A stretch of 64,000 nucleotides of DNA from Actinomycetota bacterium (GCA_027313705.1 DAHVDE010000023.1:1-64000), one strand, 5' to 3'. Counted from the stretch's first letter, positions 7,399-31,698 are shown. Notes: generated by a model from the sequence alone, not told the origin. Numbers and translations are program-made.

Positions 7399-8367
7399 TC
7401 AATCACCGGTTGCCCGTTCCTGCTGCGCGGTGGCCAGCCGGTCGAGCAGCGACACGCAGGCGTGGATCGCACACAGGTGCGGGACCTCGATGCCGAACCG
7501 CCCGGCCAGCTCGATGACCGCCCCGGTCAGGCACCCGACCTCAAGCCGCTTGCCCGCATCGAGGTCCTGCAGCATCGACGTTTTGTGATCACCGATGGCC
7601 AGCCCGGCCGCCAGCCGGCGGTCTAGCGAAACGGGAAACCTGACCGCAAGCCGCTGCGCCACCAGCGCGCATTCGCCGAACATGGCGCGCAGCAACTCCA
7701 CCATCGCCGGCTCGGACCCTAGCTCCCCGAGCGTCGCGCGGGTCAGCGCAGTCACCGAATTGAACGCCACGTTCCCGACCAGCTTCAGCCAGATCTGATC
7801 GGCAAGCCGTGACTCGACCGGCGCCTTGAGCCCGCCGGCCGCGAACGCCGCCGAGATGTCCTTGCACCGTTGCGAGGAAGAACCGTCGGCTTCGCCGATC
7901 GTGAACCTGGTGCCCTCGACGTGCCTGATCACGCCCGGAGACTCGATTTCCGTCGAGCAGTAGACCACGCACCCGACGCTGTGCCCGGCCGGAATCGAGC
8001 GCGCGATCACCCCGCCGGGGTCCACGCTCTCCAGGCCTGGCTGGTACCACCAGGGGATACCGTTCTGCGCCCAGATCACCGCCGCCCCCGGAGCAAGCAG
8101 CGGACCGAGGGCGGGAGCGATGGCAGGCAGGCTGTAGGCCTTCAGCCCGACGAACACCACATCGGCGCCGGCGACCGAGGAAAGGTCAGAGGTCACCCGC
8201 GGATGGGCGGAGAAATCGCCGCGCGGCGAGGTCACCCGCACTCCGCCGGCGGCCATCGCCGCCCCGTGGGCGCCGCGCGCGATGAGCGTGACATCGGTCC
8301 CGCCCCGCGCCAGCGCCGCCCCTACGTAAGCCCCGATCGCGCCCGCTCCGAGCACCACGACCCGCAT
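7399..8367 (-). CDS. 2-dehydropantoate 2-reductase family (ApbA/PanE)
   Basis: MRVVVLGAGAIGAYVGAALARGGTDVTLIARG. Confidence 0.85.
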   Translation of the reverse strand: MRVVVLGAGAIGAYVGAALARGGTDVTLIARGAHGAAMAAGGVRVTSPRGDFSAHPRVTSDLSSVAGADVVFVGLKAYSLPAIAPALGPLLAPGAAVIWAQNGIPWWYQPGLESVDPGGVIARSIPAGHSVGCVVYCSTEIESPGVIRHVEGTRFTIGEADGSSSQRCKDISAAFAAGGLKAPVESRLADQIWLKLVGNVAFNSVTALTRATLGELGSEPAMVELLRAMFGECALVAQRLAVRFPVSLDRRLAAGLAIGDHKTSMLQDLDAGKRLEVGCLTGAVIELAGRFGIEVPHLCAIHACVSLLDRLATAQQERATGD

Positions 8368-8378
8368 CGACGCCAGCC

Positions 8379-9905
8379 CTACCCTGCCTGCTCGGCGACA
8401 ACGGCGGCCACCATCCGGCGCTGCACCTTCCCTGTCGCGGTCCTCGGGATCTGGTCGAGCACGTGAATGGCGGACGGCACCTTGTACGCCGCCAGGTGCT
8501 CACGGCAGTAGCTGATGAGCTCCTTCGGCCCGGCCGCATCCTGCAACGTGACCGCCGCGCCGACAAGCTCACCGTACTTCTCGTCACTGACACCGAAGCA
8601 GACCGCGTCCCGCACCGCCGGATGGGACATGAGCACCTGCTCGATCTCGGCAGGCGCGATGTTCTCACCGCCCCGCAGGATCATCTCCTTGAGCCGCCCC
8701 GCCAGGTACAGGTAGCCGCCCCGCAGCACGCCGAGGTCACCGGTGCGGAACCAGTCACCGTAGAAGGCCTCGGCGGTCGCCGCCGGGTTGGCCACGTACC
8801 CGGACATAACCCCTGGCCCCCTGATCACGACCTCTCCTGCCTGTCCTTCTGGCAAGAGAGCACCGCCCGGTGCCGCGATCCCGATCTGCGTGCCGGTCGG
8901 CACGCCGACGGACCCGGGAATCCTGGCCGCCGGCGGCAGCGGGTTCGACGCCATCTGATGGCTGGCCTCGGTCATGCCGTATGCCTCGAGCATCGGCACC
9001 CCGTACGCCGCCTCGGCTCGCTCGAGCAGTGCGGGCGACAACGCCGAACTGCACGACCGCGCGAACCGCAGCGACTCGAGCGAGCCTGACCCGGCATCGA
9101 GGATCATCTGATGCAGCGTAGGACCGGCCGACAGCCAGGTCGCCCCGTGCTCCCTGGCCTGCCGCCAGAACCGCTGCGGCGTGAACCGGCGCGGCACGAC
9201 CACAGCACCGCCGCCGCACAGCGCCGCCAGCGTGGACGCGACCATGCCGTGCACGTGAAACAGCGGCATCACGCAAAACGACACGTCGTCAGCGCCGAGC
9301 CGGTAGTGGCCGGCGATCGTCACCGCAGACGCCATCATGTTCCGCTGCCGCAAAGGCACTTGCTTCGGCCGGCTGGTCGTGCCGCTCGTGTGCAGCACGA
9401 CGGCCACGTCGTCGGCCGCACCGGCCTGCTGGTAACTGGCCGGAGAACTCACTTCCTTTCCCGTCAGGAAGAGGCCAGGCGGACCATCGTCGCTTGCCTC
9501 GGCAAGCAGCAGGCTGGCTGAGCATTCCGCCGCGGCGCTGACGATCGCGGCCGGACGGCTGGCCGGGATGAGCACCAGCCTCGGCGCGATGTCGGTCAGG
9601 TAGAAGACGAACTCGCCATGGGTGTAGGCCGGGTTGAGCGGGGCCGCCGCCGCCCCGAGCAATGTGATCGCCAGCAGGAACTGCACGAACTCCGGGCCGT
9701 TAGGCAGCACGACCGCGACCCGGTCACCGCGCCTGACCCCGGCGGCGGCGAGGAGCCCGGCCAGCAGCTCCACTCGCCCGGCAAGCTGGCCGTAGGTCAG
9801 GGTGCTGCCGTCCTCGGCCACGACCAGGGCGGGCCTGGCGCTGTCAGGAGCGTCAAGCAGCTCGCTCAGCGTCCTGGCCTGCGCGCTCATCGCACCCGTG
9901 CTCAT
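8379..9905 (-). CDS. AMP-dependent acyl-CoA synthetase/ligase
   Basis: LHTSGTTSRPKQVPLRQRN, YGMTEASHQM, GDWFRTGDLGVL, RLKEMILRGGENI; ATG at 9905 overlaps the preceding stop (ATGA). Confidence 0.9.
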   Translation of the reverse strand: MSTGAMSAQARTLSELLDAPDSARPALVVAEDGSTLTYGQLAGRVELLAGLLAAAGVRRGDRVAVVLPNGPEFVQFLLAITLLGAAAAPLNPAYTHGEFVFYLTDIAPRLVLIPASRPAAIVSAAAECSASLLLAEASDDGPPGLFLTGKEVSSPASYQQAGAADDVAVVLHTSGTTSRPKQVPLRQRNMMASAVTIAGHYRLGADDVSFCVMPLFHVHGMVASTLAALCGGGAVVVPRRFTPQRFWRQAREHGATWLSAGPTLHQMILDAGSGSLESLRFARSCSSALSPALLERAEAAYGVPMLEAYGMTEASHQMASNPLPPAARIPGSVGVPTGTQIGIAAPGGALLPEGQAGEVVIRGPGVMSGYVANPAATAEAFYGDWFRTGDLGVLRGGYLYLAGRLKEMILRGGENIAPAEIEQVLMSHPAVRDAVCFGVSDEKYGELVGAAVTLQDAAGPKELISYCREHLAAYKVPSAIHVLDQIPRTATGKVQRRMVAAVVAEQAG

Positions 9906-11362
9906 CGCACCATCTCCCGTCGGCTCAACCGCCATTGTTCCTCGGCCTCGCCTATCCGGGTAGCGGCGGGTCCGCGCACGAACGGCCAGATCTCCTCGGC
10001 AATGGACCGCCAATCCGCGGTCGCCTCAAGCTCGCCGAGCACCGCGAACAACCCCAGGTTGATCCGCTGAAGCACCACATAAGAACGCGGGATCGAAACG
10101 AACTCGGCCACCGGGCTCCGCAGGTCGAAGAACCGCCTCACCACGGACGACGCATACTCGGGCGTCATCGTCAGCCGCTTGCGCTCCCTGATCGTCGCGT
10201 AGAAAACGGCCAGGTGCTCCACGACCTGCTCAGTGGTCAGCGGTGCCCCTGGCACGAGGAACCCGGCGGCCTCCATGCTGTGCCTGAACTCTTCCGGGTC
10301 GTTCTTCACGCACAGGTTCTTCGCCATGTTCATCAGCGGGTTAAGTTCGGTCTGCGTGAAGTGCTTGACCAGGCCGAAATCAAGGAACGTGACCCGGCCG
10401 CCCCCGTGAAACAAGTAGTTGCCGGGATGCGGGTCACCGTTGAACGCGTGCAGTTCATACAGGCTGCGGAACACGAACCGGTAGATAGTCTCCGCGGCCA
10501 GGTCCCGCTCGTCTTGCGACCACTGCTCGAGCTCGCTGAACTTGGCGCCGACCGCGAGGTCGCTGGTGACGACCCGCCTGGAAGAAAGCTCAGGCAGCAC
10601 CCGCGGCACGATGATCGTCGGGTGACCTTCGTAGTACGCGGCGAACGTGGCCTGGCTGGCCGCCTCGCGCCGGTAGTCGATCTCCTCGAGCACCCGCTCC
10701 TTAAGCTCGGCAAGCAGCGCGTTCACGTCCTGGCTCGGCGCGGTGACCCGCAGCATCCGGCGCAGCAGCGCGACGTTCTCCAGGTCGGCCGCGATCGCCT
10801 CGGCGATGCCCGGATACTGCACCTTGACCGCGACGGCCCGGCCGTCGCGGGTGATCGCGCGGTGCACCTGGCCGATCGACGCCGCCGCGATCGGCTCAGG
10901 GTCCCACTCGGCAAAAAGCCGCTCAGGCCGCTCCCCGAGTTCGGCCTCGATGACCTCGGCGGCAAGCTCGCCGCTCATCGGCGGGACACTGTCTTGCAGG
11001 CGGCTCAGCGTGCGCCGCACCGCGGGTGACAGGCCCTCGTCCAGGTAGCTGGCCATCTGGCCGATCTTCATCAGGACGCCCTTCATCGCGCCGAGCGTCT
11101 GCGCGACGTCCTGCGCCGTTTCCAGCGCCAGGTCCTGCCGCAGCTGCTGCCTGGCCTCGCCCGCGGCGGTGAAAAGCCTCGGCGCTCCGCCCGCGTACCT
11201 GGCACCGCCACGCGCGACCAGAGCCAAGGCGGCGAACCCGCGCTCAAGGCGCAGGCTCATCCCGCGCTTGCGCCAGCACCGCACGGCACCACCGGCAGCA
11301 GCACCGGCGGCAGCACCGGCAAGGACGGCGACCGCCCCGCCGGCCAGGAACCTCCGGCTCAT
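9902..11362 (-). CDS. ABC1/AarF (UbiB)-family kinase-like protein
   Basis: QTLGAMKGVLMKIGQMASYLDEGLSPAVRRTLSRLQDSVPPM, AVKVQYPGIAEAI, FNGDPHPGNYLFH, FLDFGLVKHF. Confidence 0.92.
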   Translation of the reverse strand: MSRRFLAGGAVAVLAGAAAGAAAGGAVRCWRKRGMSLRLERGFAALALVARGGARYAGGAPRLFTAAGEARQQLRQDLALETAQDVAQTLGAMKGVLMKIGQMASYLDEGLSPAVRRTLSRLQDSVPPMSGELAAEVIEAELGERPERLFAEWDPEPIAAASIGQVHRAITRDGRAVAVKVQYPGIAEAIAADLENVALLRRMLRVTAPSQDVNALLAELKERVLEEIDYRREAASQATFAAYYEGHPTIIVPRVLPELSSRRVVTSDLAVGAKFSELEQWSQDERDLAAETIYRFVFRSLYELHAFNGDPHPGNYLFHGGGRVTFLDFGLVKHFTQTELNPLMNMAKNLCVKNDPEEFRHSMEAAGFLVPGAPLTTEQVVEHLAVFYATIRERKRLTMTPEYASSVVRRFFDLRSPVAEFVSIPRSYVVLQRINLGLFAVLGELEATADWRSIAEEIWPFVRGPAATRIGEAEEQWRLSRREMVR

Positions 11363-12243
11363 GACAGGCGCGCCGCACGCACCCGGCCAGCGACTCGCTG
11401 CCGCGCCTCGAGCACTCCAGGCTCGCCTAGATACACCGCGTCGAGCACGCCGAGCGCCTGCCTGATCTCGGTCCGCCGCTCCTCCGTCAGCGGCACCGGA
11501 TCATAGCCGTACATCCCGGCCGCCCACTCGGGCAGCGACGCGACCGCACCGTCCCTGATGTCGCGCCAGATCCCGGCGAGGTCCTCGTCTAGTCCCGGCG
11601 GGTCAAGCAGGTACGCCATCGACTCCGCCGCAGCGGGCGTGCAGGCAAGCTCGGGCCTGACCGAATCGAGGTAGGCCGCGAGCTGCGCGACCGACACAGG
11701 CACCAGCTCGCGTGGCACGCCGACCAGCTCGGCCGCAACCACCATCTCAGCCACGTAGGCGTCCGCTTCGCGGTCATCTGGCGGGGAGCCGAAGAGCTCG
11801 CGGGCCACAAGTGCCGAGTCGATCAGGGCGGCGTGCACCCACAGCAGCAGGGCCGGGTCGCTGGCCGAGTAGTCCCGCCCCGTCACGTGGTCGGTCCCGG
11901 TCACCCGCTGGTGAATCCGCCTGACCCGCGCCGCGGCCTTCTCGGCGGCCGCCTGCTCGCCGAAGCTCACCGTCGCCAGGTAACGCGACGTGGCGGCCAG
12001 CCGCCCCACCGGGTCTTCCCGCCAGTCGCTGTGCTGGTCGACCCCGGCCATGGCGAGCGGGTGCAGTGCCTGCATCAGCAGCGCCCGCAGCCCGCCGACC
12101 GGCGCGGACAGGTCACCGCTGGCCCGCCAGGTGACGCTGGACGGCCCAAAGAAGCCATCGTCAGCCGGGTGCTCGGGCACGCCGTCCGCGAAAGCCGCCG
12201 CCGACCGCTCGACCAGCCCCGCAGCGTCCGCATATACGTCCAT
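11359..12243 (-). CDS. Oxygenase MpaB-family / DUF2236 protein
   Basis: GGLRALLMQALHPLAMAGVDQHSDWREDPVGRLAATSRYLATVSFG. Confidence 0.85.
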   Translation of the reverse strand: MDVYADAAGLVERSAAAFADGVPEHPADDGFFGPSSVTWRASGDLSAPVGGLRALLMQALHPLAMAGVDQHSDWREDPVGRLAATSRYLATVSFGEQAAAEKAAARVRRIHQRVTGTDHVTGRDYSASDPALLLWVHAALIDSALVARELFGSPPDDREADAYVAEMVVAAELVGVPRELVPVSVAQLAAYLDSVRPELACTPAAAESMAYLLDPPGLDEDLAGIWRDIRDGAVASLPEWAAGMYGYDPVPLTEERRTEIRQALGVLDAVYLGEPGVLEARQRVAGRVRAARLS

Positions 12244-24197: not shown

Positions 24198-24674
24198 TTA
24201 CGGGATATCCCCTACCTCGTAGGTAACCGCGCGGTATGCGACGATGACCGAGCCGCACTGGTCATTCCCCGTCTTCTTCAGGTGCCCGGTGATGCGGGTC
24301 GTGAAGTTGCCGCTGTAGCGCAGGCCCTTGTACCACCCAGTGGCATAGAAGACGTCGAACGTGCCGGTCTGGCTCTCGGTGAACACGCAGGTAGACAGGT
24401 TGGGCGGGTTGACCGACGTGCTCAGCAGGTGCCGGTGAACCGCGATTCTCCCGTGCGGGAAGACCAGGCTGGCCCGCTTGCGCCAGAAGTAACCCTTGGC
24501 CTTGAACGCCCCGTAGGCGTCGGCCCGGGCGTGTTTCGGCCCTGGCATGGTGTCGACGATCTCGAAGGTCTCCTTTCCGTGCCTGGCCGGGGCACTGGTG
24601 AAGCCGGCCGTGCCGAGCACGGCGACCGCGAGCAGCGCGGCGGCGACCGCGCCTGACCGCTTCTTTGCAGGCAT
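24198..24674 (-). CDS. Secreted hypothetical protein
   Basis: MPAKKRSGAVAAALLAVAVLGTAGFTSAPA signal peptide; RBS-like AGGAGGA upstream. Confidence 0.7.
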   Translation of the reverse strand: MPAKKRSGAVAAALLAVAVLGTAGFTSAPARHGKETFEIVDTMPGPKHARADAYGAFKAKGYFWRKRASLVFPHGRIAVHRHLLSTSVNPPNLSTCVFTESQTGTFDVFYATGWYKGLRYSGNFTTRITGHLKKTGNDQCGSVIVAYRAVTYEVGDIP

Positions 24675-24694
24675 CCTTCCTCCTTTACTGGTTC

Positions 24695-25342
24695 TCAGAA
24701 GTAACTCACCATCAGAACCGCTGCGGCTACGGCGATCGCGATCAGTACCGCGCCGTCGACCCGCCTGGCGTAGACGGCCTTGAGCAACAGGTCCAGCTGC
24801 GCCGCCGCCCCGCCCGCTCCGGCCCTCGCACCGGCACCGGCACCTGCACCGGCAACCACCCCGACGCGCAGCGCGCCGAGGTCTGAAAGCAGGGCGATCG
24901 CCCGCGCTCCGCCATGGGCCAGGCCGATCACGGCGCCGAGCGCCACCGCAGCCCGCGTTCCCGCCATTCCCGCCACCACGACCGCCGCGGGCAGCAGGCC
25001 GAATCCGGCGTACGGATTCCTGGTCAAGAACCCTGGCCCGAGTATCGCCCCCCATACCGCGACCCTGCGCCAGGGTGGCGCGTCGATCAGCATCGTCTGC
25101 GGCACCTGCCAGCGCCGGCCTGGCGCCGCCAGCCCGCGCATTCCGGTGACCTCGGTCACGCCGTAGTACCCGCCGTAGCCGACCGCGAGCACCAGCCCGG
25201 CCGCGAAGGGCACCAGGGCAAGCAGTGCACCGGCCAGCGACCATACCGCGACAGCGGGCACCGCATAGGCGGCCACGACCAGGCACCGCGCCCAGGGCCT
25301 CCCGACCGGAAGGCCGGCCGCCAGCGAGACGGCCGAGTTCAC
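24695..25342 (-). CDS. Multi-pass membrane protein of unknown function
   Basis: Hydrophobic 215-aa ORF tightly coupled to the Cys-rich/MauE-like genes; Gly-Ala repeat GAGAGAGARAGAGG. Confidence 0.65.
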   Translation of the reverse strand: MNSAVSLAAGLPVGRPWARCLVVAAYAVPAVAVWSLAGALLALVPFAAGLVLAVGYGGYYGVTEVTGMRGLAAPGRRWQVPQTMLIDAPPWRRVAVWGAILGPGFLTRNPYAGFGLLPAAVVVAGMAGTRAAVALGAVIGLAHGGARAIALLSDLGALRVGVVAGAGAGAGARAGAGGAAAQLDLLLKAVYARRVDGAVLIAIAVAAAVLMVSYF

Positions 25343-25345
25343 GCC

Positions 25346-25441
25346 TCAAGGAGAGTACGCCTTGGAGTACCCGTTGACGGCCGCGAGCACCACGGCCAGG
25401 CCGGCCAGCACGGGCAGCACCGGCAGCACCTGCAGCGGCAT
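25346..25441 (-). CDS. 31-aa single-TM small protein
   Basis: MPLQVLPVLPVLAGLAVVLAAVNGYSKAYSP; fits exactly between its two co-oriented neighbours. Confidence 0.45.
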   Translation of the reverse strand: MPLQVLPVLPVLAGLAVVLAAVNGYSKAYSP

Positions 25442-25443
25442 CG

Positions 25444-25917
25444 TCAGGCCAGGTCGAGATGCTGTAGCTGGCGCTGTTCTGCCTTGATGTCGGCCGGGCT
25501 GGTGCAGCCGCAGCAGATGCACTTGGTCAGGCAGGTGCACCAGCCTTCGCAGCCGCCAGGGCCGATGCAGTCGTAGCAGACCTTGTAGCCAAGGCCCTTG
25601 CCCAGGCCCATGCAGGCGATCCAGTTACCTGAAGGCCATTCGCACCGGTAACCCTGGGCGTTAAAGCAACCGCTGCTGAACGAGCCCTTGCACAGGTGAT
25701 ATTTGTGCGGACAGCCGATATCCGGGCACTTGTCGCACCGTCGCGTCGGTCCGCACGTGCAGGTCTGCGCCTGCGCCGCGCTGTTGCCCGCGGCCAGTGC
25801 GGCCAGCCCCGTCGTGCCGCCGACGATGGCGCGGCGCAGCGCGTCCCTGCGGCTCACCCGCCTGGCTACCCGCTCGGTCACCCGCCTGCCCGGCTTGCCC
25901 GGCTTGCCAAGGCTCAT
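25444..25917 (-). CDS. Tat-exported Cys-rich protein resembling methylamine dehydrogenase light chain
   Basis: SRRDALRR Tat-like signal; 18 Cys in about 108 mature residues; WIAC...GYKVCYDC...CEGWCTC pattern; ATGA overlap with the MauD-like gene. Confidence 0.65.
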   Translation of the reverse strand: MSLGKPGKPGRRVTERVARRVSRRDALRRAIVGGTTGLAALAAGNSAAQAQTCTCGPTRRCDKCPDIGCPHKYHLCKGSFSSGCFNAQGYRCEWPSGNWIACMGLGKGLGYKVCYDCIGPGGCEGWCTCLTKCICCGCTSPADIKAEQRQLQHLDLA

Positions 25918-26510
25918 CTGCTTGCCTCCCCTAGTGCCGCGGCGGCTGGCTCGGCCGCCGACGCGCTCGTGATGTACTGGCGCACCTGCGCAGCCTCGAT
26001 CGCCGAGCCGGCCGCCCTGACGGTGCCGAAGCCGTCGATGGCGACCAGAAGCGGTGTCGCCGACACCGCGTAGGCGTCAAGCTCGGCGGGCCGCGCCGGA
26101 CGGCCGATCTCAAGCTCGGTGGCCTCGAAAGCCGGTGAGATCTGGAGGTAACTGACCGGATCGGAAATCATCAGCACGACCCGCGTACCGCCTAGCTCGC
26201 CGGCCGCCGCGAACGAGCCGAGCACCTTGACGAGTTCCTCGCACGACGGACAGGTCGGATCGACGAAGGCGAGCACCAGCGGCTGCCCGGCGCCGGGACG
26301 CAGTAGCCTCGGCTCCCGCTCACCTGGCCTCAGATAGTGCAGCGGGGTGGCCAGGCGGCCGACCGGCGGGCCGAGCTCTCCGGCCTGCCCGGTGCCGCTC
26401 ATCAGCTGGCCAAGCTGCCTGAACAGCACGAAGACGAGAACGCCCAGCCCGCCGAGCAAGGCCCACTGCGCGACCGCCAGGTCAAGTGGTATCCGCACCA
26501 TAACGCCCAT
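25914..26510 (-). CDS. MauD/TlpA-like membrane-anchored thioredoxin-fold protein (CPSC)
   Basis: N-terminal TM then LVLAFVDPTCPSCEELVKVLGSF; ATPLLVAIDGFG. Confidence 0.78.
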   Translation of the reverse strand: MGVMVRIPLDLAVAQWALLGGLGVLVFVLFRQLGQLMSGTGQAGELGPPVGRLATPLHYLRPGEREPRLLRPGAGQPLVLAFVDPTCPSCEELVKVLGSFAAAGELGGTRVVLMISDPVSYLQISPAFEATELEIGRPARPAELDAYAVSATPLLVAIDGFGTVRAAGSAIEAAQVRQYITSASAAEPAAAALGEASR

Positions 26511-27064
26511 CTCCTCAGGGAGCGAGGCTTCACTCCGGCCCGCGCCCCGGCCGCCGCGCTGAACGCCGCCAGCGCCACGAGCAAGGCAGCCGCGAGCAAG
26601 GCAAATTCGGCTGCCGGCCCCAGCCGCACCGCGATCGCGGACACAGGCAGCGAGCCGAGCAGTCCGGCGAGCACCAGGCCGGCCGCCCTGAATACCCCGG
26701 CGATGCTGAAGCCGCGCCGCGACAGCGCGCCGAAACACCGGCATGGCCGCCCGCGATATCGCAGGTAACCGACCGTCCACACGACGAGGAAGCTGACGCA
26801 GATCGCCAGCACCACCAGGTTCAGCCACCAGGCGCGCGGCAGCGCGAGACTGGCCGCGCCGGCCGCGACTTCTCCGGCCGCGATCAGCACCGCAAGCGCG
26901 GAGATCAGCGGGCCGGCCGCGAGCGGGGGCAAGAACAGCCGCACGGTGCCCGCGAAACCGGCCGGATCGGCCAGTTTGGCCCCGCCCGCCGCCACAAGCA
27001 GCACTGCGACGGCGGACTTGCATCCGAGCACCCCGATCTCAAGCACCGCGTTCGTGACGTGCAC
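26402..27064 (-). CDS. MauE/DoxX-like redox-associated membrane protein
   Basis: Four-TM pattern, CKSAVAVLLVAAGGAKLADPAGF, CRCFGALS motif. Confidence 0.78.
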   Translation of the reverse strand: MHVTNAVLEIGVLGCKSAVAVLLVAAGGAKLADPAGFAGTVRLFLPPLAAGPLISALAVLIAAGEVAAGAASLALPRAWWLNLVVLAICVSFLVVWTVGYLRYRGRPCRCFGALSRRGFSIAGVFRAAGLVLAGLLGSLPVSAIAVRLGPAAEFALLAAALLVALAAFSAAAGARAGVKPRSLRRWALWCGYHLTWRSRSGPCSAGWAFSSSCCSGSLAS

Positions 27065-27069
27065 CTGGG

Positions 27070-27654
27070 CTACACCGCCAGCCTGAACGCGGGCCGAGGC
27101 AGTTCTGCGTCCTGGTCGGCGGCTGGCGGCATGCCCGCGATCTGCCTGAGCTTGACCAGTTGCCAGTCGTGATTTACCAGGCTGGACGCCCTGACCAGGC
27201 CGGCCTGGTCGACGAAGATGGCGAACGGCATGACTCTGACGTTGTAGTCGCCATACAGCTTCGGCGACCCGGCGAGCACGGTGATGCCGTCAAGGCCAAG
27301 CTGCCAGGCCAGCTCGGCCGCGCCCTCGCTCGCTCCCCTGGTCAAGATCACGATCTCCAGGTCGCCAGGCTGGCTGAGCTCCTGCAGGCCGGCCACCACC
27401 GAGGGGAACGCCCTGAGCGAATGATCGGCGAACAGGATCAGTTGAAGCGAAGCCGCAGCAGGCGGCGACGAGTGCGCCTGCCCGGCGGCGTCGGCGAGCG
27501 TCCAGGCCGGAGCGCGCCTGCCCCTGGCTAGGCCGTCGCGCTCGATGGCTGCGGCTCCCGACAGGGCAAGCTGCCCGATACCGAACCAGGCAAGCATCCC
27601 CGCAGCGCACAATATTATCGTAATTACGATAAAGACGATTGAATTCGCGATCAC
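27070..27654 (-). CDS. MauD/TlpA-like membrane protein lacking a CxxC motif
   Basis: N-terminal TM, GRRAPAWTLADAAGQ, LILFADHSLRAFPSV where CxxC is expected, VRVMPFAIFVDQAGLVRA. Confidence 0.72.
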   Translation of the reverse strand: MIANSIVFIVITIILCAAGMLAWFGIGQLALSGAAAIERDGLARGRRAPAWTLADAAGQAHSSPPAAASLQLILFADHSLRAFPSVVAGLQELSQPGDLEIVILTRGASEGAAELAWQLGLDGITVLAGSPKLYGDYNVRVMPFAIFVDQAGLVRASSLVNHDWQLVKLRQIAGMPPAADQDAELPRPAFRLAV

Positions 27655-27675
27655 GTGCGGACCAAATCTGACCTG

Positions 27676-28518
27676 TCAGGGTTCATGCCAGACTTCATGC
27701 AGTGAACCCAACCATCCGCGGCTGGCAATGGTCAAGCATGGCGAGTCCGTCAGGTATGAAGCGTCGCTTAATGGCTGGCTCACGCGCCTTCCTGGTAAGT
27801 GCCGAGCCGACCAGCGCGGCCCGAAGCAAGCCCACTCGATCGCCCAGCAAGCCAGGCGGCGCCGGTCCATGGCCCATCTGACCAGCCAGCCAAGCCCGAA
27901 CCCGGTCAGCAAAAGCCCGAGCGCGGTCATAACCTCGACCAGAATTACACGGAATGTCACGATATTAGCGGTGACCGGACCTTGCCCGGTCACCGCGCCA
28001 CGCTGGTTAACCCAGATCTTGACGCTCGCCCCGACCGGCGTCCCTGGCGCGGCAGGCACAAGGCCGGTCTTGCGGACGCCAGCCGGAGTCCGCCACCGGC
28101 CGTAAACCCATGCCGTCTCGCTGGCACTGAAGCCATTCATCCTGGCGGGGGCGGCAGTGAGCACGACCGCGCTGACCTCGCGCCAGGACCGCTCGGCAAC
28201 GACCAGTCGCATGTTGCTTGCCCTGGTCGCGCCGCCCGCCATCGGCACGAGCAGCGGCACGGCGATCAAGAATGCCACCGCGAGCAGCAGCCAGAACGCC
28301 CGTTCAGCCCGGTCGATGCCGCGCCGCAAAGGATTGCCGTCCATCCCGGCCAGGCGAGCAGCCCGCCTGAGCGGCCTGGACGTGTTCCATCTGCTACGGT
28401 CCCCCGTCCGTCGCACACCGACAGCATTCCCAGCCATAGCCAATCCACGCACCACGTCGTTCCGAAGCCGCCAGGCGAGCCGATCGTGGTAGCGTGCGCG
28501 AGGTAGACGGGGGGTCAA
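27676..28518 (-). CDS. Rv1733c-like membrane protein
   Basis: NPLRRGIDRAERAFWLLL...AWVYGRWRTPAGVRKTGLVPAAPGTPVGASVKIWVNQRGAVT; start uncertain (internal Met possible). Confidence 0.68.
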   Translation of the reverse strand: MTPRLPRARYHDRLAWRLRNDVVRGLAMAGNAVGVRRTGDRSRWNTSRPLRRAARLAGMDGNPLRRGIDRAERAFWLLLAVAFLIAVPLLVPMAGGATRASNMRLVVAERSWREVSAVVLTAAPARMNGFSASETAWVYGRWRTPAGVRKTGLVPAAPGTPVGASVKIWVNQRGAVTGQGPVTANIVTFRVILVEVMTALGLLLTGFGLGWLVRWAMDRRRLACWAIEWACFGPRWSARHLPGRRVSQPLSDASYLTDSPCLTIASRGWLGSLHEVWHEP

Positions 28519-28521
28519 CGG

Positions 28522-29715
28522 TTGTACGGGGGGCCGAAGACCTGGTCCTTGCTTGATCCGCTGCGGACCAGGCGATTCTTCCTGGCCGGCGTCGCTGCCG
28601 GAGTGCTCGTCATGTCAGCGACCGGCCTGGCGGCGGCCAGGCTGATCGAGTCGCCGGGTCAGCTTGCGGCGCGATCGGCGGCGCCGGCCGGCGCTGTGAT
28701 CACCGGCGTGGCCAGCATGCGGGTACTGCGGACCGAGATCGCGGTACCAGGCACCGTGCGCGCCGGGCACACCGTGGCGGTGACCGCCGCCGCGCCTTAC
28801 CGTGCCGTGGTCCTCACCGGGGTGCCGGTCAAGCTCGGGGATGTGGTCAGGCCAGGACAGGTGATCGCCGAGATCGACGGCAGGCCGGTCATCTTGCTCA
28901 GGGGCACGCTGCCGCCATTTCGCGACCTGCGAGAAGGCGATGCCGGCCCGGACGTGACCCAGTTGCAGGCCGCGCTCAGGGGCCTTGGTTACGCCGACTA
29001 CGACGCGGCCGGCTATTTCGGCCCTGGCACCGCCTTCGCTTTGCGGCTGCTCTACCAGCATCTCGGCTACTCCGCACCGCTTTACCGCCGGCAGCCGAGC
29101 CGGCCCGGCCGGCACCTGCCGCCGCAGGTCTACCTGCCCATGGCTCAGGTGAGCTACATCCCCGCGGCGGCGGCGCTGGTCGTAGCCGTCGATGCCAGGG
29201 CGGGCAGCACCGTGGCAGCCGGCCGCGTCGTGCTGAGACTGGCCACAGGTAACCCGTACGTGACCGGGCTGCTCAGCGCCGGGCAGGCCACGCTGATCAG
29301 GGCGGGCGACCCGGCCGTTATCGATTCAGCCAGCCCGCACGTCGCGGCGGCCGGCACGGTGACGGCGATCGGCGCCATTCCCGCCTACGCCAGAGGCGCC
29401 GGCCTGGCGGGCTTCCCCGTCCATGTCACGCTGAAACACCCGCTGGCCGAGAGCCTGACCGGCCTGAGGGTCAGGCTCACGATCTGGTCAGCGGTCACCA
29501 GGTCCCCGGTACTCACGGTGCCGCTGGCCGCGGTATCTAGCACCGGCTCGGCACGCCGCATGGTCAGCTTCGTCACCACGATCGCACCTGGCGGCCGCAC
29601 CAGCCGGGTCACGGTAACCACCGGCCGGTCAGCGGGCGGTTACGTGGCGGTGACCCCGGCCGGCCAGGACGCGCTCCGGCCAGGCGACCACGTCGTGATC
29701 GGAGCGCGCCGGTGA
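28522..29715 (+). CDS. Membrane-fusion/adaptor-like protein with peptidoglycan-binding domain
   Basis: DLREGDAGPDVTQLQAALRGLGYADYDAAGYFGPGTAFALRLLYQ; HlyD-like VKLGDVVRPGQVIAEIDGRPV. Confidence 0.82.
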   Translation: MYGGPKTWSLLDPLRTRRFFLAGVAAGVLVMSATGLAAARLIESPGQLAARSAAPAGAVITGVASMRVLRTEIAVPGTVRAGHTVAVTAAAPYRAVVLTGVPVKLGDVVRPGQVIAEIDGRPVILLRGTLPPFRDLREGDAGPDVTQLQAALRGLGYADYDAAGYFGPGTAFALRLLYQHLGYSAPLYRRQPSRPGRHLPPQVYLPMAQVSYIPAAAALVVAVDARAGSTVAAGRVVLRLATGNPYVTGLLSAGQATLIRAGDPAVIDSASPHVAAAGTVTAIGAIPAYARGAGLAGFPVHVTLKHPLAESLTGLRVRLTIWSAVTRSPVLTVPLAAVSSTGSARRMVSFVTTIAPGGRTSRVTVTTGRSAGGYVAVTPAGQDALRPGDHVVIGARR

Positions 29716-30458
29716 CGACCGGCCTGCGGCCTCCCGTCGTCGAGCTCGAGGCGATCGAACTGCGTCAGCCCAGGTCGACGCCGTCGCCGGGCGGCCGCAT
29801 CGACCTCACGGTCTGGCCAGGCGAACTGATCACGCTGGCCGGGACGCCCAGGTCTGGCCGGTCGGCGCTGCTCAGCGTGCTCGGTCTGCTTGACCGGCCG
29901 GCCGCTGGCAGGTACCTGCTGAACGGCGCGGATACCTCCAGGCTGAAGGACAAGGAGGCCTCGGCGCTGCGCGGCAGGCTGATCGGCTTGGTGTTCCAGC
30001 GCAAGATGCTGCTGCCGAGCAGGTCGGTGCTCGACAATGTGATGCTGCCGCTGCGCTACGCGGGCCAGCGCGGCCCGCGCCGCCTTGCCATCGCGCTCGG
30101 CTGCCTGGAGCGGGCCGGGCTTGCCGACCGGGCGGCGCTCATGACCTGGCAGCTATCCGCGGGCGAACTCGCCCTGTGCGCGATCGCCAGGGCGCTGGTC
30201 ACCAGCCCTGGCCTGCTGCTCTGTGACGAGCCAGCAGCCGGGGTTGAACGAGAAGCCGCGGCCAGGATCGGCGGCCTGCTCGCAGCGCTGTCGAGGGAAG
30301 GCAGGACCGTGATCGCGGCCACCGACGACCAGTTCACCGCCGCCTACAGTTCCAGGTCGGTACTGCTCGGCCGCATCGCCGCGATCGAGGCGCCGGCGAT
30401 CACCGCCGCAGCAGCTAGCACGACTCCAGCCAGGGAAGCGGCCGGCCTCAATGACTAA
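29712..30458 (+). CDS. ABC ATP-binding subunit (MacB/LolD-like) with degenerate nucleotide-binding motifs
   Basis: Walker A GTPRSGRSALL (K to R), Q-loop VFQ, signature LSAGE, Walker B LLLCDEPAAG, H-loop ATDD (H to D). Confidence 0.82.
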   Translation: MTTGLRPPVVELEAIELRQPRSTPSPGGRIDLTVWPGELITLAGTPRSGRSALLSVLGLLDRPAAGRYLLNGADTSRLKDKEASALRGRLIGLVFQRKMLLPSRSVLDNVMLPLRYAGQRGPRRLAIALGCLERAGLADRAALMTWQLSAGELALCAIARALVTSPGLLLCDEPAAGVEREAAARIGGLLAALSREGRTVIAATDDQFTAAYSSRSVLLGRIAAIEAPAITAAAASTTPAREAAGLND

Positions 30459-31698
30459 CGTGGCGACCAGGCCGACCGTGCTCAGGGCGCCAGACGCGCT
30501 CGCCGAGGCCGGCGCCGCGATCACCGCCAGGCATGGACCTGCCATCTTCACCAGCTGCTGCGTCATGCTCGCGGTGGCCTGGTTCGTCGCCGCGCTCGGC
30601 CTGATCAGCACCGCCGAAGGCGCGGTGGCGAAGGCGTTCGCGGCCAGGCTGCCGACGTCCCTGACGATCACCGCGCCGGCCTCGGGGTTGCCTGACCCGC
30701 CGTTCCCCTTCCCGGCCGGCGCGGCGGCCAGGCTGGCCGCGATGCCTGGAGTGGTCGCGGCGGGCGTGTGGTGGCCGGCACGCCTGGACGGCGGACCAGT
30801 CACGGTCAGCACTGGACCTGGGTCATGGCCGGTGGCCGGCCTGCGCCCGCCGGTGATCGCGGCCGGTCCAGGGTTCCTCGCGGCGGCGGGCGTCAAGGTA
30901 GGGGCGGGCCGCGCGTTCGATGCCTGGGACCATGCACACGCGGCCGGCACCTGCCTCGTCGGCTCGGCGCTCGCCCGCCGACTCGGCCTCGCCTGGCCAG
31001 GCCGCCAGCAGCTCATCTACCTCGGCGGCCTGGCCTGCACGGTGACCGGGATCGTGGCGAGCGCACCCGCGCGGCCCGCCCTGCTCGGCTCGGTCATGCT
31101 GCCTGCCTCGGCCGCGACGGCGTTTTTCGGTCCGCCAGGACGGCCTGCGGGCGGCGGACCCGCGATCGTGGTCCGCGTCAGGCCTGGCGCCGCCGCGACG
31201 GTGGCCAGGCTGGCGCCTTACGAGATCAGTGCAGCCGCACCCCGCCAGTTCCGTGTCGCCGTGCCGCCGAGCCCGGTGCAGCTAGACCGGCAGGTCTCGG
31301 GCGCACTGCACGGCTTGTTCGCGATTGCCTGCTGGGCGGGAGCCGTTTTCTGCCTTATTGGCATATCAGGATTTTCCTATTTCATCGCGGCACAGCGGCT
31401 GCCTGAATTGTCGCTGCGCCGAGCACTCGGGGCCAGGCGGCGGCACATCGCGGTGCACGTGCTCACCGAGTCTGCGCTGCTCGGGCTGCTAGGCGGACTC
31501 GCCGGAGCCGGCCTAGGCGTGGCCGTCATCGTCCTGGCGGCGCAGGCCATGGGCTGGACTCCGGTGGCCAACCCGGTGACGCTCTGGCCGGCGCCGCTCG
31601 CCGGGGCCTGCGCCGGGCTGGTCGCCGGAATCGTTCCCGCAGCGCGGGCGGCATGGATCAGGCCGGCCCGCGGGCTGACCAAATTCGCGCCTTTGTAG
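30451..31698 (+). CDS. MacB/FtsX-like ABC permease
   Basis: LPELSLRRALGARRRHIAVHVLTESALLGLLGGLAGAGLGV; C-terminal GLVAGIVPAARAAWIRPARGLT. Confidence 0.82.
   Translation: MTNVATRPTVLRAPDALAEAGAAITARHGPAIFTSCCVMLAVAWFVAALGLISTAEGAVAKAFAARLPTSLTITAPASGLPDPPFPFPAGAAARLAAMPGVVAAGVWWPARLDGGPVTVSTGPGSWPVAGLRPPVIAAGPGFLAAAGVKVGAGRAFDAWDHAHAAGTCLVGSALARRLGLAWPGRQQLIYLGGLACTVTGIVASAPARPALLGSVMLPASAATAFFGPPGRPAGGGPAIVVRVRPGAAATVARLAPYEISAAAPRQFRVAVPPSPVQLDRQVSGALHGLFAIACWAGAVFCLIGISGFSYFIAAQRLPELSLRRALGARRRHIAVHVLTESALLGLLGGLAGAGLGVAVIVLAAQAMGWTPVANPVTLWPAPLAGACAGLVAGIVPAARAAWIRPARGLTKFAPL

What the first reader, a model, noticed from the sequence alone, without database searches (positions are those of the whole stretch)
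24198..31698. Candidate undescribed system: orphan Mau-light-chain-like Cys-rich exported protein with MauE/MauD-like partners next to an adaptor/ABC/permease set
Seen directly: tightly coupled minus-strand genes encode a TlpA/MauD-like protein, a MauE-like membrane protein, a second MauD-like protein with CPSC, a Tat-signal protein with 18 Cys in about 108 mature residues, a 31-aa TM peptide, a membrane protein and a secreted protein. The divergent strand carries an adaptor with peptidoglycan-binding domain, an ABC ATPase and a FtsX-like permease. Established: in methylamine dehydrogenase, MauE and MauD are needed to form the disulfides of the Cys-rich TTQ light chain MauA. Inference: the same maturation logic is reused for a different exported Cys-rich protein, since no heavy chain (MauB), MauG or amicyanin gene is visible here. 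Whether the ABC set belongs to the same system is open.
Basis: partly seen in the sequence, partly recalled or inferred. Interest (0 to 1): 0.78.

Follow-up and report, generated by a model that had tools for sequence, protein, structure and literature searches.

The report
Selenocysteine MauF in orphan Mau-like cassette
Soil actinobacteria carry a conserved gene set, borrowed from the machinery that matures methylamine dehydrogenase, next to an unfamiliar cysteine-rich exported protein, and one of its membrane proteins (MauF-like) almost certainly contains the rare amino acid selenocysteine, read from a TGA codon that splits the gene into two apparent genes.

Summary
The genes are as described, with one major correction. 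The '31-aa TM peptide' and the downstream 'membrane protein' are one gene (24695-25441, minus) interrupted by an in-frame TGA (25346-25348). It is a remote homolog of MauF, and the TGA sits at MauF's SPCG cysteine. All 12 relatives of the same family examined at that site have TGA, as do three genomes from two other actinobacterial families and Thermomicrobium roseum. A more distant actinobacterial relative has TGC, and its genome lacks selA. The window's genome has selA, selB, tRNA-Sec, a SelD-like gene and a TGA-containing formate dehydrogenase. A GGUC-loop hairpin follows the TGA in 14 actinobacterial sites (background 0.1% of codons), and the genome's own FdhA hairpin has the same GGUC. 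No such family is in a 2026 catalogue of 119 selenoprotein families.

The order MauD-like, MauE, MauD(CPSC), Cys-rich protein, MauF(Sec) is conserved. No MauB was found in any carrier tested. The Cys-rich protein shares MauA's leader, but its mature part is not PF02975 and only one Trp is invariant, so TTQ is unlikely. The ABC set is not conserved. Likely function: a Mau-derived, selenium-dependent disulfide-maturation cassette. The Sec reading is strong; the redox mechanism is inferred.

The parts
27070..27654 (-). MauD1: membrane-anchored thioredoxin-fold MauD/TlpA-like protein without CxxC (conserved F.DHSL.SFP in its place)
   Evidence: Weak TIGR02661 match; alignment of 13 sequences, CxxC absent in all
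26402..27064 (-). MauE: DoxX-like redox membrane protein with conserved C.C[FL]G.L motif
   Evidence: PF07291 E=1.8e-12 over cut-off; alignment
25914..26510 (-). MauD2: membrane-anchored thioredoxin-fold protein with CPSC
   Evidence: TIGR02661 E=1e-7, Thioredoxin_3 3e-4; CxxC in all homologs
25444..25917 (-). Cys-rich exported protein, 157 aa, 18 Cys in the mature part, long Tat-type SRR leader of MauA type
   Evidence: No Pfam/NCBIfam family; relatives in 13 other genomes of its family; alignment A2
24695..25441 (-). MauF-like polytopic membrane selenoprotein, 248 aa with Sec at residue 32 (SPUG)
   Evidence: TGA aligned with MauF Cys; hhalign to MauF score 43 vs shuffled max 19
25346..25348 (-). 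In-frame TGA read as selenocysteine
   Evidence: TGA in 17 of 17 split sites, TGC in G713 and Pseudomonadota MauF; Sec machinery in own genome
25296..25315 (-). bSECIS-like hairpin GGCCUUCC-GGUC-GGGAGGCC downstream of the TGA
   Evidence: GGUC loop in 11/11 core loci and in G746, G721, G792; background 3/3114 codons; absent from Cys forms
25314..25336 (-). First, less conserved hairpin between TGA and the GGUC hairpin
   Evidence: 79.8% of cells paired, one pair with double changes; weak support
24198..24674 (-). Small secreted protein, present in about half of the loci; accessory
   Evidence: tblastn synteny; no family (part of the protein scanned)

Best explanation
The locus is a Mau-derived oxidative-folding cassette without methylamine dehydrogenase. 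A Cys-rich protein is exported behind a MauA-type Tat leader. Outside the membrane its 18 cysteines are paired into disulfides by MauD2 (membrane-anchored thioredoxin fold, CPSC). The membrane proteins MauE (C.CFG) and MauF exchange electrons with MauD2. MauF carries selenocysteine at the end of its first transmembrane helix, where the Pseudomonadota MauF has cysteine. MauD1, which has lost its CxxC, would act as a non-catalytic chaperone or scaffold. Shown: gene order and conservation, the motifs, the Sec codon with its SECIS-like hairpin and Sec machinery, and absence of MauB. Inferred: export and topology, the direction of electron flow, disulfide formation as the end result, and the final role of the Cys-rich protein.
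For: Sec: the TGA lies at one alignment column in all 14 sites (window, 12 same-family loci, T. roseum) and in G746, G721 and G792; Cys at that column in Paracoccus and Indioceanicola MauF and in G713. Own genome: selB and selA with tRNA-Sec on one contig, a SelD-like ORF and FdhA with an internal TGA. SelA in all three distant TGA-type genomes, absent in the TGC-type G713. GGUC hairpin in 11 core and 3 distant actinobacterial sites, 0.1% background, absent from Cys forms; the own FdhA has a GGUCU loop. Purifying selection on both sides of the TGA and no consistent restart codon. Mau origin: PF07291; MauF homology far above shuffled controls; G713 MauF finds only annotated MauF in plasmids; E-D-A gene order as in mau clusters. 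No MauB.
Against: No experimental selenium or disulfide data. The window's SECIS loop lies 37-38 nt from the TGA, at the edge of the published 16-37 nt range. Two divergent relatives (L037, L038) have CGGGA/CGGGC loops rather than GGUC, and T. roseum has only a weaker hairpin and untested Sec machinery. G361 lacks selA/selB hits, though it has TGA-type FdhA. MauF's biochemical role is unknown even in Paracoccus (own knowledge). No structure could be obtained for the Cys-rich protein (pLDDT 40) and the MauF model matched nothing in the PDB.
Confidence: 0.8

Rival explanations
1. The TGA is an ordinary stop; the TM peptide and the membrane protein are two separate small genes that are translationally coupled.
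For: Two ORFs are what a standard gene finder lists; in the window a GTG lies two codons after the TGA.
Against: No start codon is conserved after the TGA (first in-frame start at codon 44 or 55 in L014/L010), yet the residues right after it are conserved. The TGA column is Cys in homologs. A SECIS-like hairpin and Sec machinery are present. All 17 stops are TGA, none TAA or TAG.
Confidence: 0.04
2. The locus makes a TTQ-dependent amine dehydrogenase of the MADH/AADH type with a divergent light chain.
For: MauE-MauD-light-chain order and MauA-type leader; one Trp, tentatively aligned with MauA Trp57, is invariant in 12 family members.
Against: No PF06433 heavy chain in any carrier tested; no PF02975; the second Trp is replaced by Phe or Thr in L036-L038.
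Confidence: 0.05
3. The Cys-rich protein is a RiPP-like or bacteriocin-like precursor whose modified product is released and acts on other cells; the Mau genes are its modification enzymes.
For: decRiPPter reported MauE/MauD homologs beside precursors with at least 8 Cys in Streptomyces (PMC7794033); a few loci lie near ABC exporters.
Against: The whole mature chain of about 108 residues is conserved, with 28 invariant columns in 12 full-length sequences, more like a folded protein than a variable core peptide; Tat-type leader rather than an ABC-exporter leader; no conserved exporter in the syntenic core.
Confidence: 0.2
4. MauF(Sec) works in the reducing direction, like CcdA/DsbD, supplying electrons so that the Cys-rich protein stays reduced, for example to bind metal.
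For: The SP[C/U]G motif at the end of the first TM helix recalls the SPC of CcdA (own knowledge); Cys pairs such as CICC and CTC could bind metal.
Against: No fold match to CcdA/DsbD in the PDB; MauE is thought to act in disulfide formation in the MADH small subunit (PMC7794033).
Confidence: 0.15

Closest known systems
mau cluster of Paracoccus denitrificans (mauF-B-E-D-A-amicyanin-J-G)
   Same: MauE, MauD and MauF homologs; order E-D-A; exported Cys-rich protein with a long SRR leader
   Different: No MauB heavy chain; MauF follows the Cys-rich gene and carries Sec; a second, CxxC-less MauD; Cys-rich protein outside PF02975 with 18 Cys and no conserved TTQ Trp pair
decRiPPter MauE/MauD candidate families in Streptomyces (PMC7794033)
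   Same: MauE, in one family also MauD, next to a Cys-rich small protein, without other mau genes
   Different: No MauF or selenocysteine mentioned in the passages read; sequences not compared here
Catalogue of 119 prokaryotic selenoprotein families (PMC13188914)
   Same: Redox-linked Cys-to-Sec replacement, UGA plus bSECIS, Sec machinery in the genome
   Different: No MauF or Mau-type family is listed
Thermomicrobium roseum megaplasmid locus (L044)
   Same: MauA (PF02975), MauE, MauD and a MauF-like protein split by TGA at the same residue
   Different: Both TTQ-type Trp present; MauE fused to a large N-terminal domain that looks like a propeller; its MauF is annotated as a hypothetical protein starting after the TGA

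Membership tests
Bacterial selenoprotein | In-frame TGA aligned with Cys in homologs | tested here: met
   17 TGA sites against Cys in Paracoccus, Indioceanicola and G713
Bacterial selenoprotein | SelA, SelB, tRNA-Sec, SelD in the genome | tested here: met
   G000:C68; SelD-like ORF recognised by eye; TGA-type FdhA
[quoted passage not shown]
   GGUC loop; 38 nt, or 37 if the closing C-G is counted in the loop as the model's N1/N2 pair; 31-33 nt in G746/G721/G792; -14.1 kcal/mol in the window
Bacterial selenoprotein | Selenium in the protein | not testable with these tools
   needs labelling or mass spectrometry
MauF | Sequence homology to MauF | tested here: met
   hhalign 43.3 vs shuffled max 18.7 and reversed 18.4; bridge through G713
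MauF | SP[C/U]G at the end of a TM helix and location beside mauE/mauD | tested here: met
MauF | Needed for MADH biosynthesis | not testable with these tools
   no MADH here
MauE (PF07291) | Over curated cut-off | tested here: met
   48.1 vs 27 bits
MauD equivalog (TIGR02661) | Over curated cut-off 188.6 bits | tested here: not met
   31.7 (MauD2) and 19.7 (MauD1) bits; MauD-like only
MADH light chain MauA (PF02975) | Over curated cut-off | tested here: not met
   no match at E<1; 0 in own genome
MADH light chain MauA (PF02975) | Two TTQ tryptophans | tested here: not met
   first invariant; W126 replaced by F or T in divergent members
MADH light chain MauA (PF02975) | Long Tat-type leader | tested here: met
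   leader-only hhalign 26.75 vs shuffled max 19.1
MADH light chain MauA (PF02975) | Heavy chain MauB in the genome | tested here: not met
   PF06433 absent; positive control rings
Complete MADH system | MauG diheme enzyme in the genome | not tested
   no genome search was left

The most novel reading that the evidence does not exclude
A selenium-dependent membrane thiol-redox pathway (MauF-Sec/MauE/MauD) dedicated to maturing several unrelated-looking families of exported multi-disulfide proteins across Actinomycetota and Thermomicrobiota. Methylamine dehydrogenase would be only one special client. Some clients may carry new protein-derived cofactors built on the invariant Trp.
Probability: 0.35. 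Interest if true: 0.88.

Novelty: new variant of a known kind. Interest (0 to 1): 0.78.

Why it matters
It adds what looks like a new selenoprotein family, a multi-span membrane protein rather than the usual thioredoxin fold, and it points to the reactive residue of MauF, whose role in methylamine dehydrogenase biosynthesis has been unclear. Because Cys-to-Sec exchange usually marks a catalytic thiol, it makes the mechanism of Mau-type disulfide maturation directly testable. It also exposes a gene that standard annotation splits in two, and a group of unnamed exported Cys-rich proteins in little-studied soil actinobacteria.

Tried and rejected
AlphaFold of the mature Cys-rich protein (10 sequences): pLDDT 40, discarded. 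AlphaFold of MauF(U to C): pLDDT 73, pTM 0.76, but no PDB match at E<0.001. PDB profile search with the Cys-rich family: nothing relevant. A class-wide search with the Cys-rich profile gave only spurious low-scoring hits outside the own family. Profile comparison Cys-rich vs T. roseum light chains: no signal. Whole-sequence hhalign Cys-rich vs MauA looked good (91.8%), but controls showed that the leader carries it. MFE z-scores of the 51-nt post-TGA RNA against synonymous recodings were unremarkable; the specific GGUC hairpin, not overall stability, is the signal. Rfam has no relevant match. The W99-W126 crosslink idea was dropped when divergent members lacked W126. The ABC trio was rejected as a system component because most loci lack it. 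Sec machinery of T. roseum could not be tested (only its megaplasmid is held; no selA there; its genome paper does not mention selenium).

Full report
1. The observation. The minus-strand genes described are present. MauE is a true PF07291 member (E=1.8e-12). The two thioredoxin-fold proteins resemble MauD, but below the equivalog cut-off. MauD2 (25914-26510) has CPSC, and MauD1 (27070-27654) has lost CxxC in all homologs aligned. The 157-aa protein has 18 Cys, all in the mature part, and matches no Pfam or NCBIfam family even at E=1, apart from sub-threshold Tat-signal models. Searches of relatives found the Cys-rich protein in 14 of 343 genomes of the same family, the window's own included; in a class-wide sample only spurious low-scoring hits appeared besides the window. 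In the carriers with enough flank the order MauD1-MauE-MauD2-Cys-rich-(TM)-membrane protein is invariant. The secreted protein is present in about half. HlyD/ABC/FtsX genes lie nearby only in the window, L012 and L037.

2. One gene, not two. The 31-aa TM peptide ends ..NGYSKAYSP and the membrane protein continues in the same frame after a TGA: G[A/V]NSA.SLA. This arrangement recurs in the relatives, and the codon is TGA each time. The same thing happens in Thermomicrobium roseum (..ALWSP-TGA-GYSMVDVL..), where the RefSeq protein starts after the TGA. MauF of Paracoccus denitrificans reads ..STWSPCGYSSISLL.., so the TGA takes the place of a conserved Cys.

3. Homology to MauF. Profile comparison of the joined proteins (with C) against two MauF sequences gives hhalign score 43.3, E=1.2e-5 (pairwise), against 13.4 +/- 2.1 (max 18.7) for column-shuffled and 18.4 for reversed profiles. 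T. roseum against MauF gives probability 94%. A phylum-wide search with the joined profile found G746 and G721 (one family, fused to MauE) and, weakly, G792, each with TGA at the site, and G713 with TGC. G713's protein matches Indioceanicola MauF at 1.6e-12 in a small pairwise set. In a search of 72,556 plasmids its only hits, 13 of them, are all annotated MauF. The best E-value there is 2e-4, so each hit is modest.

4. Selenocysteine. The window's genome carries selB and selA side by side and tRNA-Sec nearby on contig C68, a SelD-like ORF, and a formate dehydrogenase alpha gene with one internal TGA. SelA is found in 13 of 14 carriers (in three only as contig-edge or partial matches) against 18 of 31 other members of the family with a full-strength match. 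The exception, G361, has a TGA-containing FdhA, so its machinery is probably missing from the assembly. Among the distant relatives, the three TGA-type genomes have selA and the TGC-type G713 (99% complete) has none.

5. SECIS. In the 11 core loci a hairpin with invariant GGUC loop follows the TGA. Its stem is preserved through C-G, U-G and G-C at one pair that involves third codon positions, and through C-G/U-A at another. Random synonymous recoding gives this hairpin in about 9% of cases, and the minority codons GGG and AGA/AGG are used consistently to keep it. In G746, G721 and G792 other stem sequences again present GGUC, 31-33 nt after the TGA. Counting exact GGUC loops with at least 5 bp, 30-40 nt downstream, gives 3 of 3114 codons in ordinary genes of the window; the three Cys-type mauF genes lack a stable hairpin of the bSECIS type. 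The genome's own FdhA hairpin is GUCCCC-GGUCU-GGGGAC. The published bacterial model asks for a G, mostly G[G/U], at the start of a 3-9 nt loop, 16-37 nt from the UGA (PMC13188914); the window sits at the edge of that spacing (37-38 nt). L037, L038 and T. roseum have weaker or different loops. Restart of translation after the TGA is not plausible, because in-frame start codons are not conserved and in two loci first occur 44-55 codons later.

6. The Cys-rich protein. Leader-only comparison with MauA is clear (26.75 vs shuffled max 19.1); the mature part is marginal (20.75 vs 20.0). One Trp is invariant in 12 sequences, while the second is lost in divergent members. PF06433 (MauB) is absent from all 15 actinobacterial genomes tested, while the Paracoccus control rings. 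The proteins beside MauF in G746/G721/G713, G963 and G792 differ from the window's protein and largely from each other, yet all are Cys-rich with an SRR/TRR-type leader. T. roseum keeps a genuine PF02975 light chain (9.2e-9).

7. Mechanism and status. The likeliest reading is a disulfide-maturation cassette with MauF(Sec) as a membrane redox partner. That MauE is thought to act in disulfide formation in the MADH small subunit is from the literature (PMC7794033); the direction of electron flow here is inferred. MauE/MauD next to Cys-rich small proteins has been noted before as candidate RiPP clusters in Streptomyces (same paper). A Sec-containing MauF appears in neither the 119-family catalogue nor the deep-Sep list, and two literature searches pairing MauF with selenium terms found nothing relevant; subscription papers and preprints are not covered.

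Noticed in passing
L044:2780-3232, 7542-8378, 8407-10197, 10747-11412: T. roseum megaplasmid: two MauA-like light chains, several propeller-like ORFs, a MauE with a large N-terminal extension, MauD and a TGA-split MauF; possibly a TTQ enzyme matured with selenocysteine. The RefSeq MauF-like protein is N-terminally truncated.
   Followed up: partly
L070:8082, L071:8070, L074:7629 (TGA sites): Three genomes from two other actinobacterial families have MauF with TGA next to quite different Cys-rich exported proteins; in L070 and L071 MauF and MauE are one fused gene, interrupted by the Sec codon.
   Followed up: partly
window 28522-31698 (+): HlyD-like adaptor with peptidoglycan-binding domain, ABC ATPase and MacB/FtsX permease, similar trios near L012 and L037 only; MacB-like export set of unknown cargo.
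   Followed up: partly
window 27676-28518 (-): Rv1733c-family membrane protein (NF050032, 5.2e-34) directly upstream of the cassette; present at a distance in two same-genus loci.
   Followed up: no
window 27070-27654 (-): MauD1 family: a thioredoxin-fold protein whose CxxC is replaced by a conserved DHSL.SFP-like stretch in all homologs; an unexplained conserved non-redox version.
   Followed up: no
G000:C68:84617-87508: Own-genome formate dehydrogenase alpha with internal TGA and a textbook bSECIS 18 nt downstream, close to the sel genes.
   Followed up: yes
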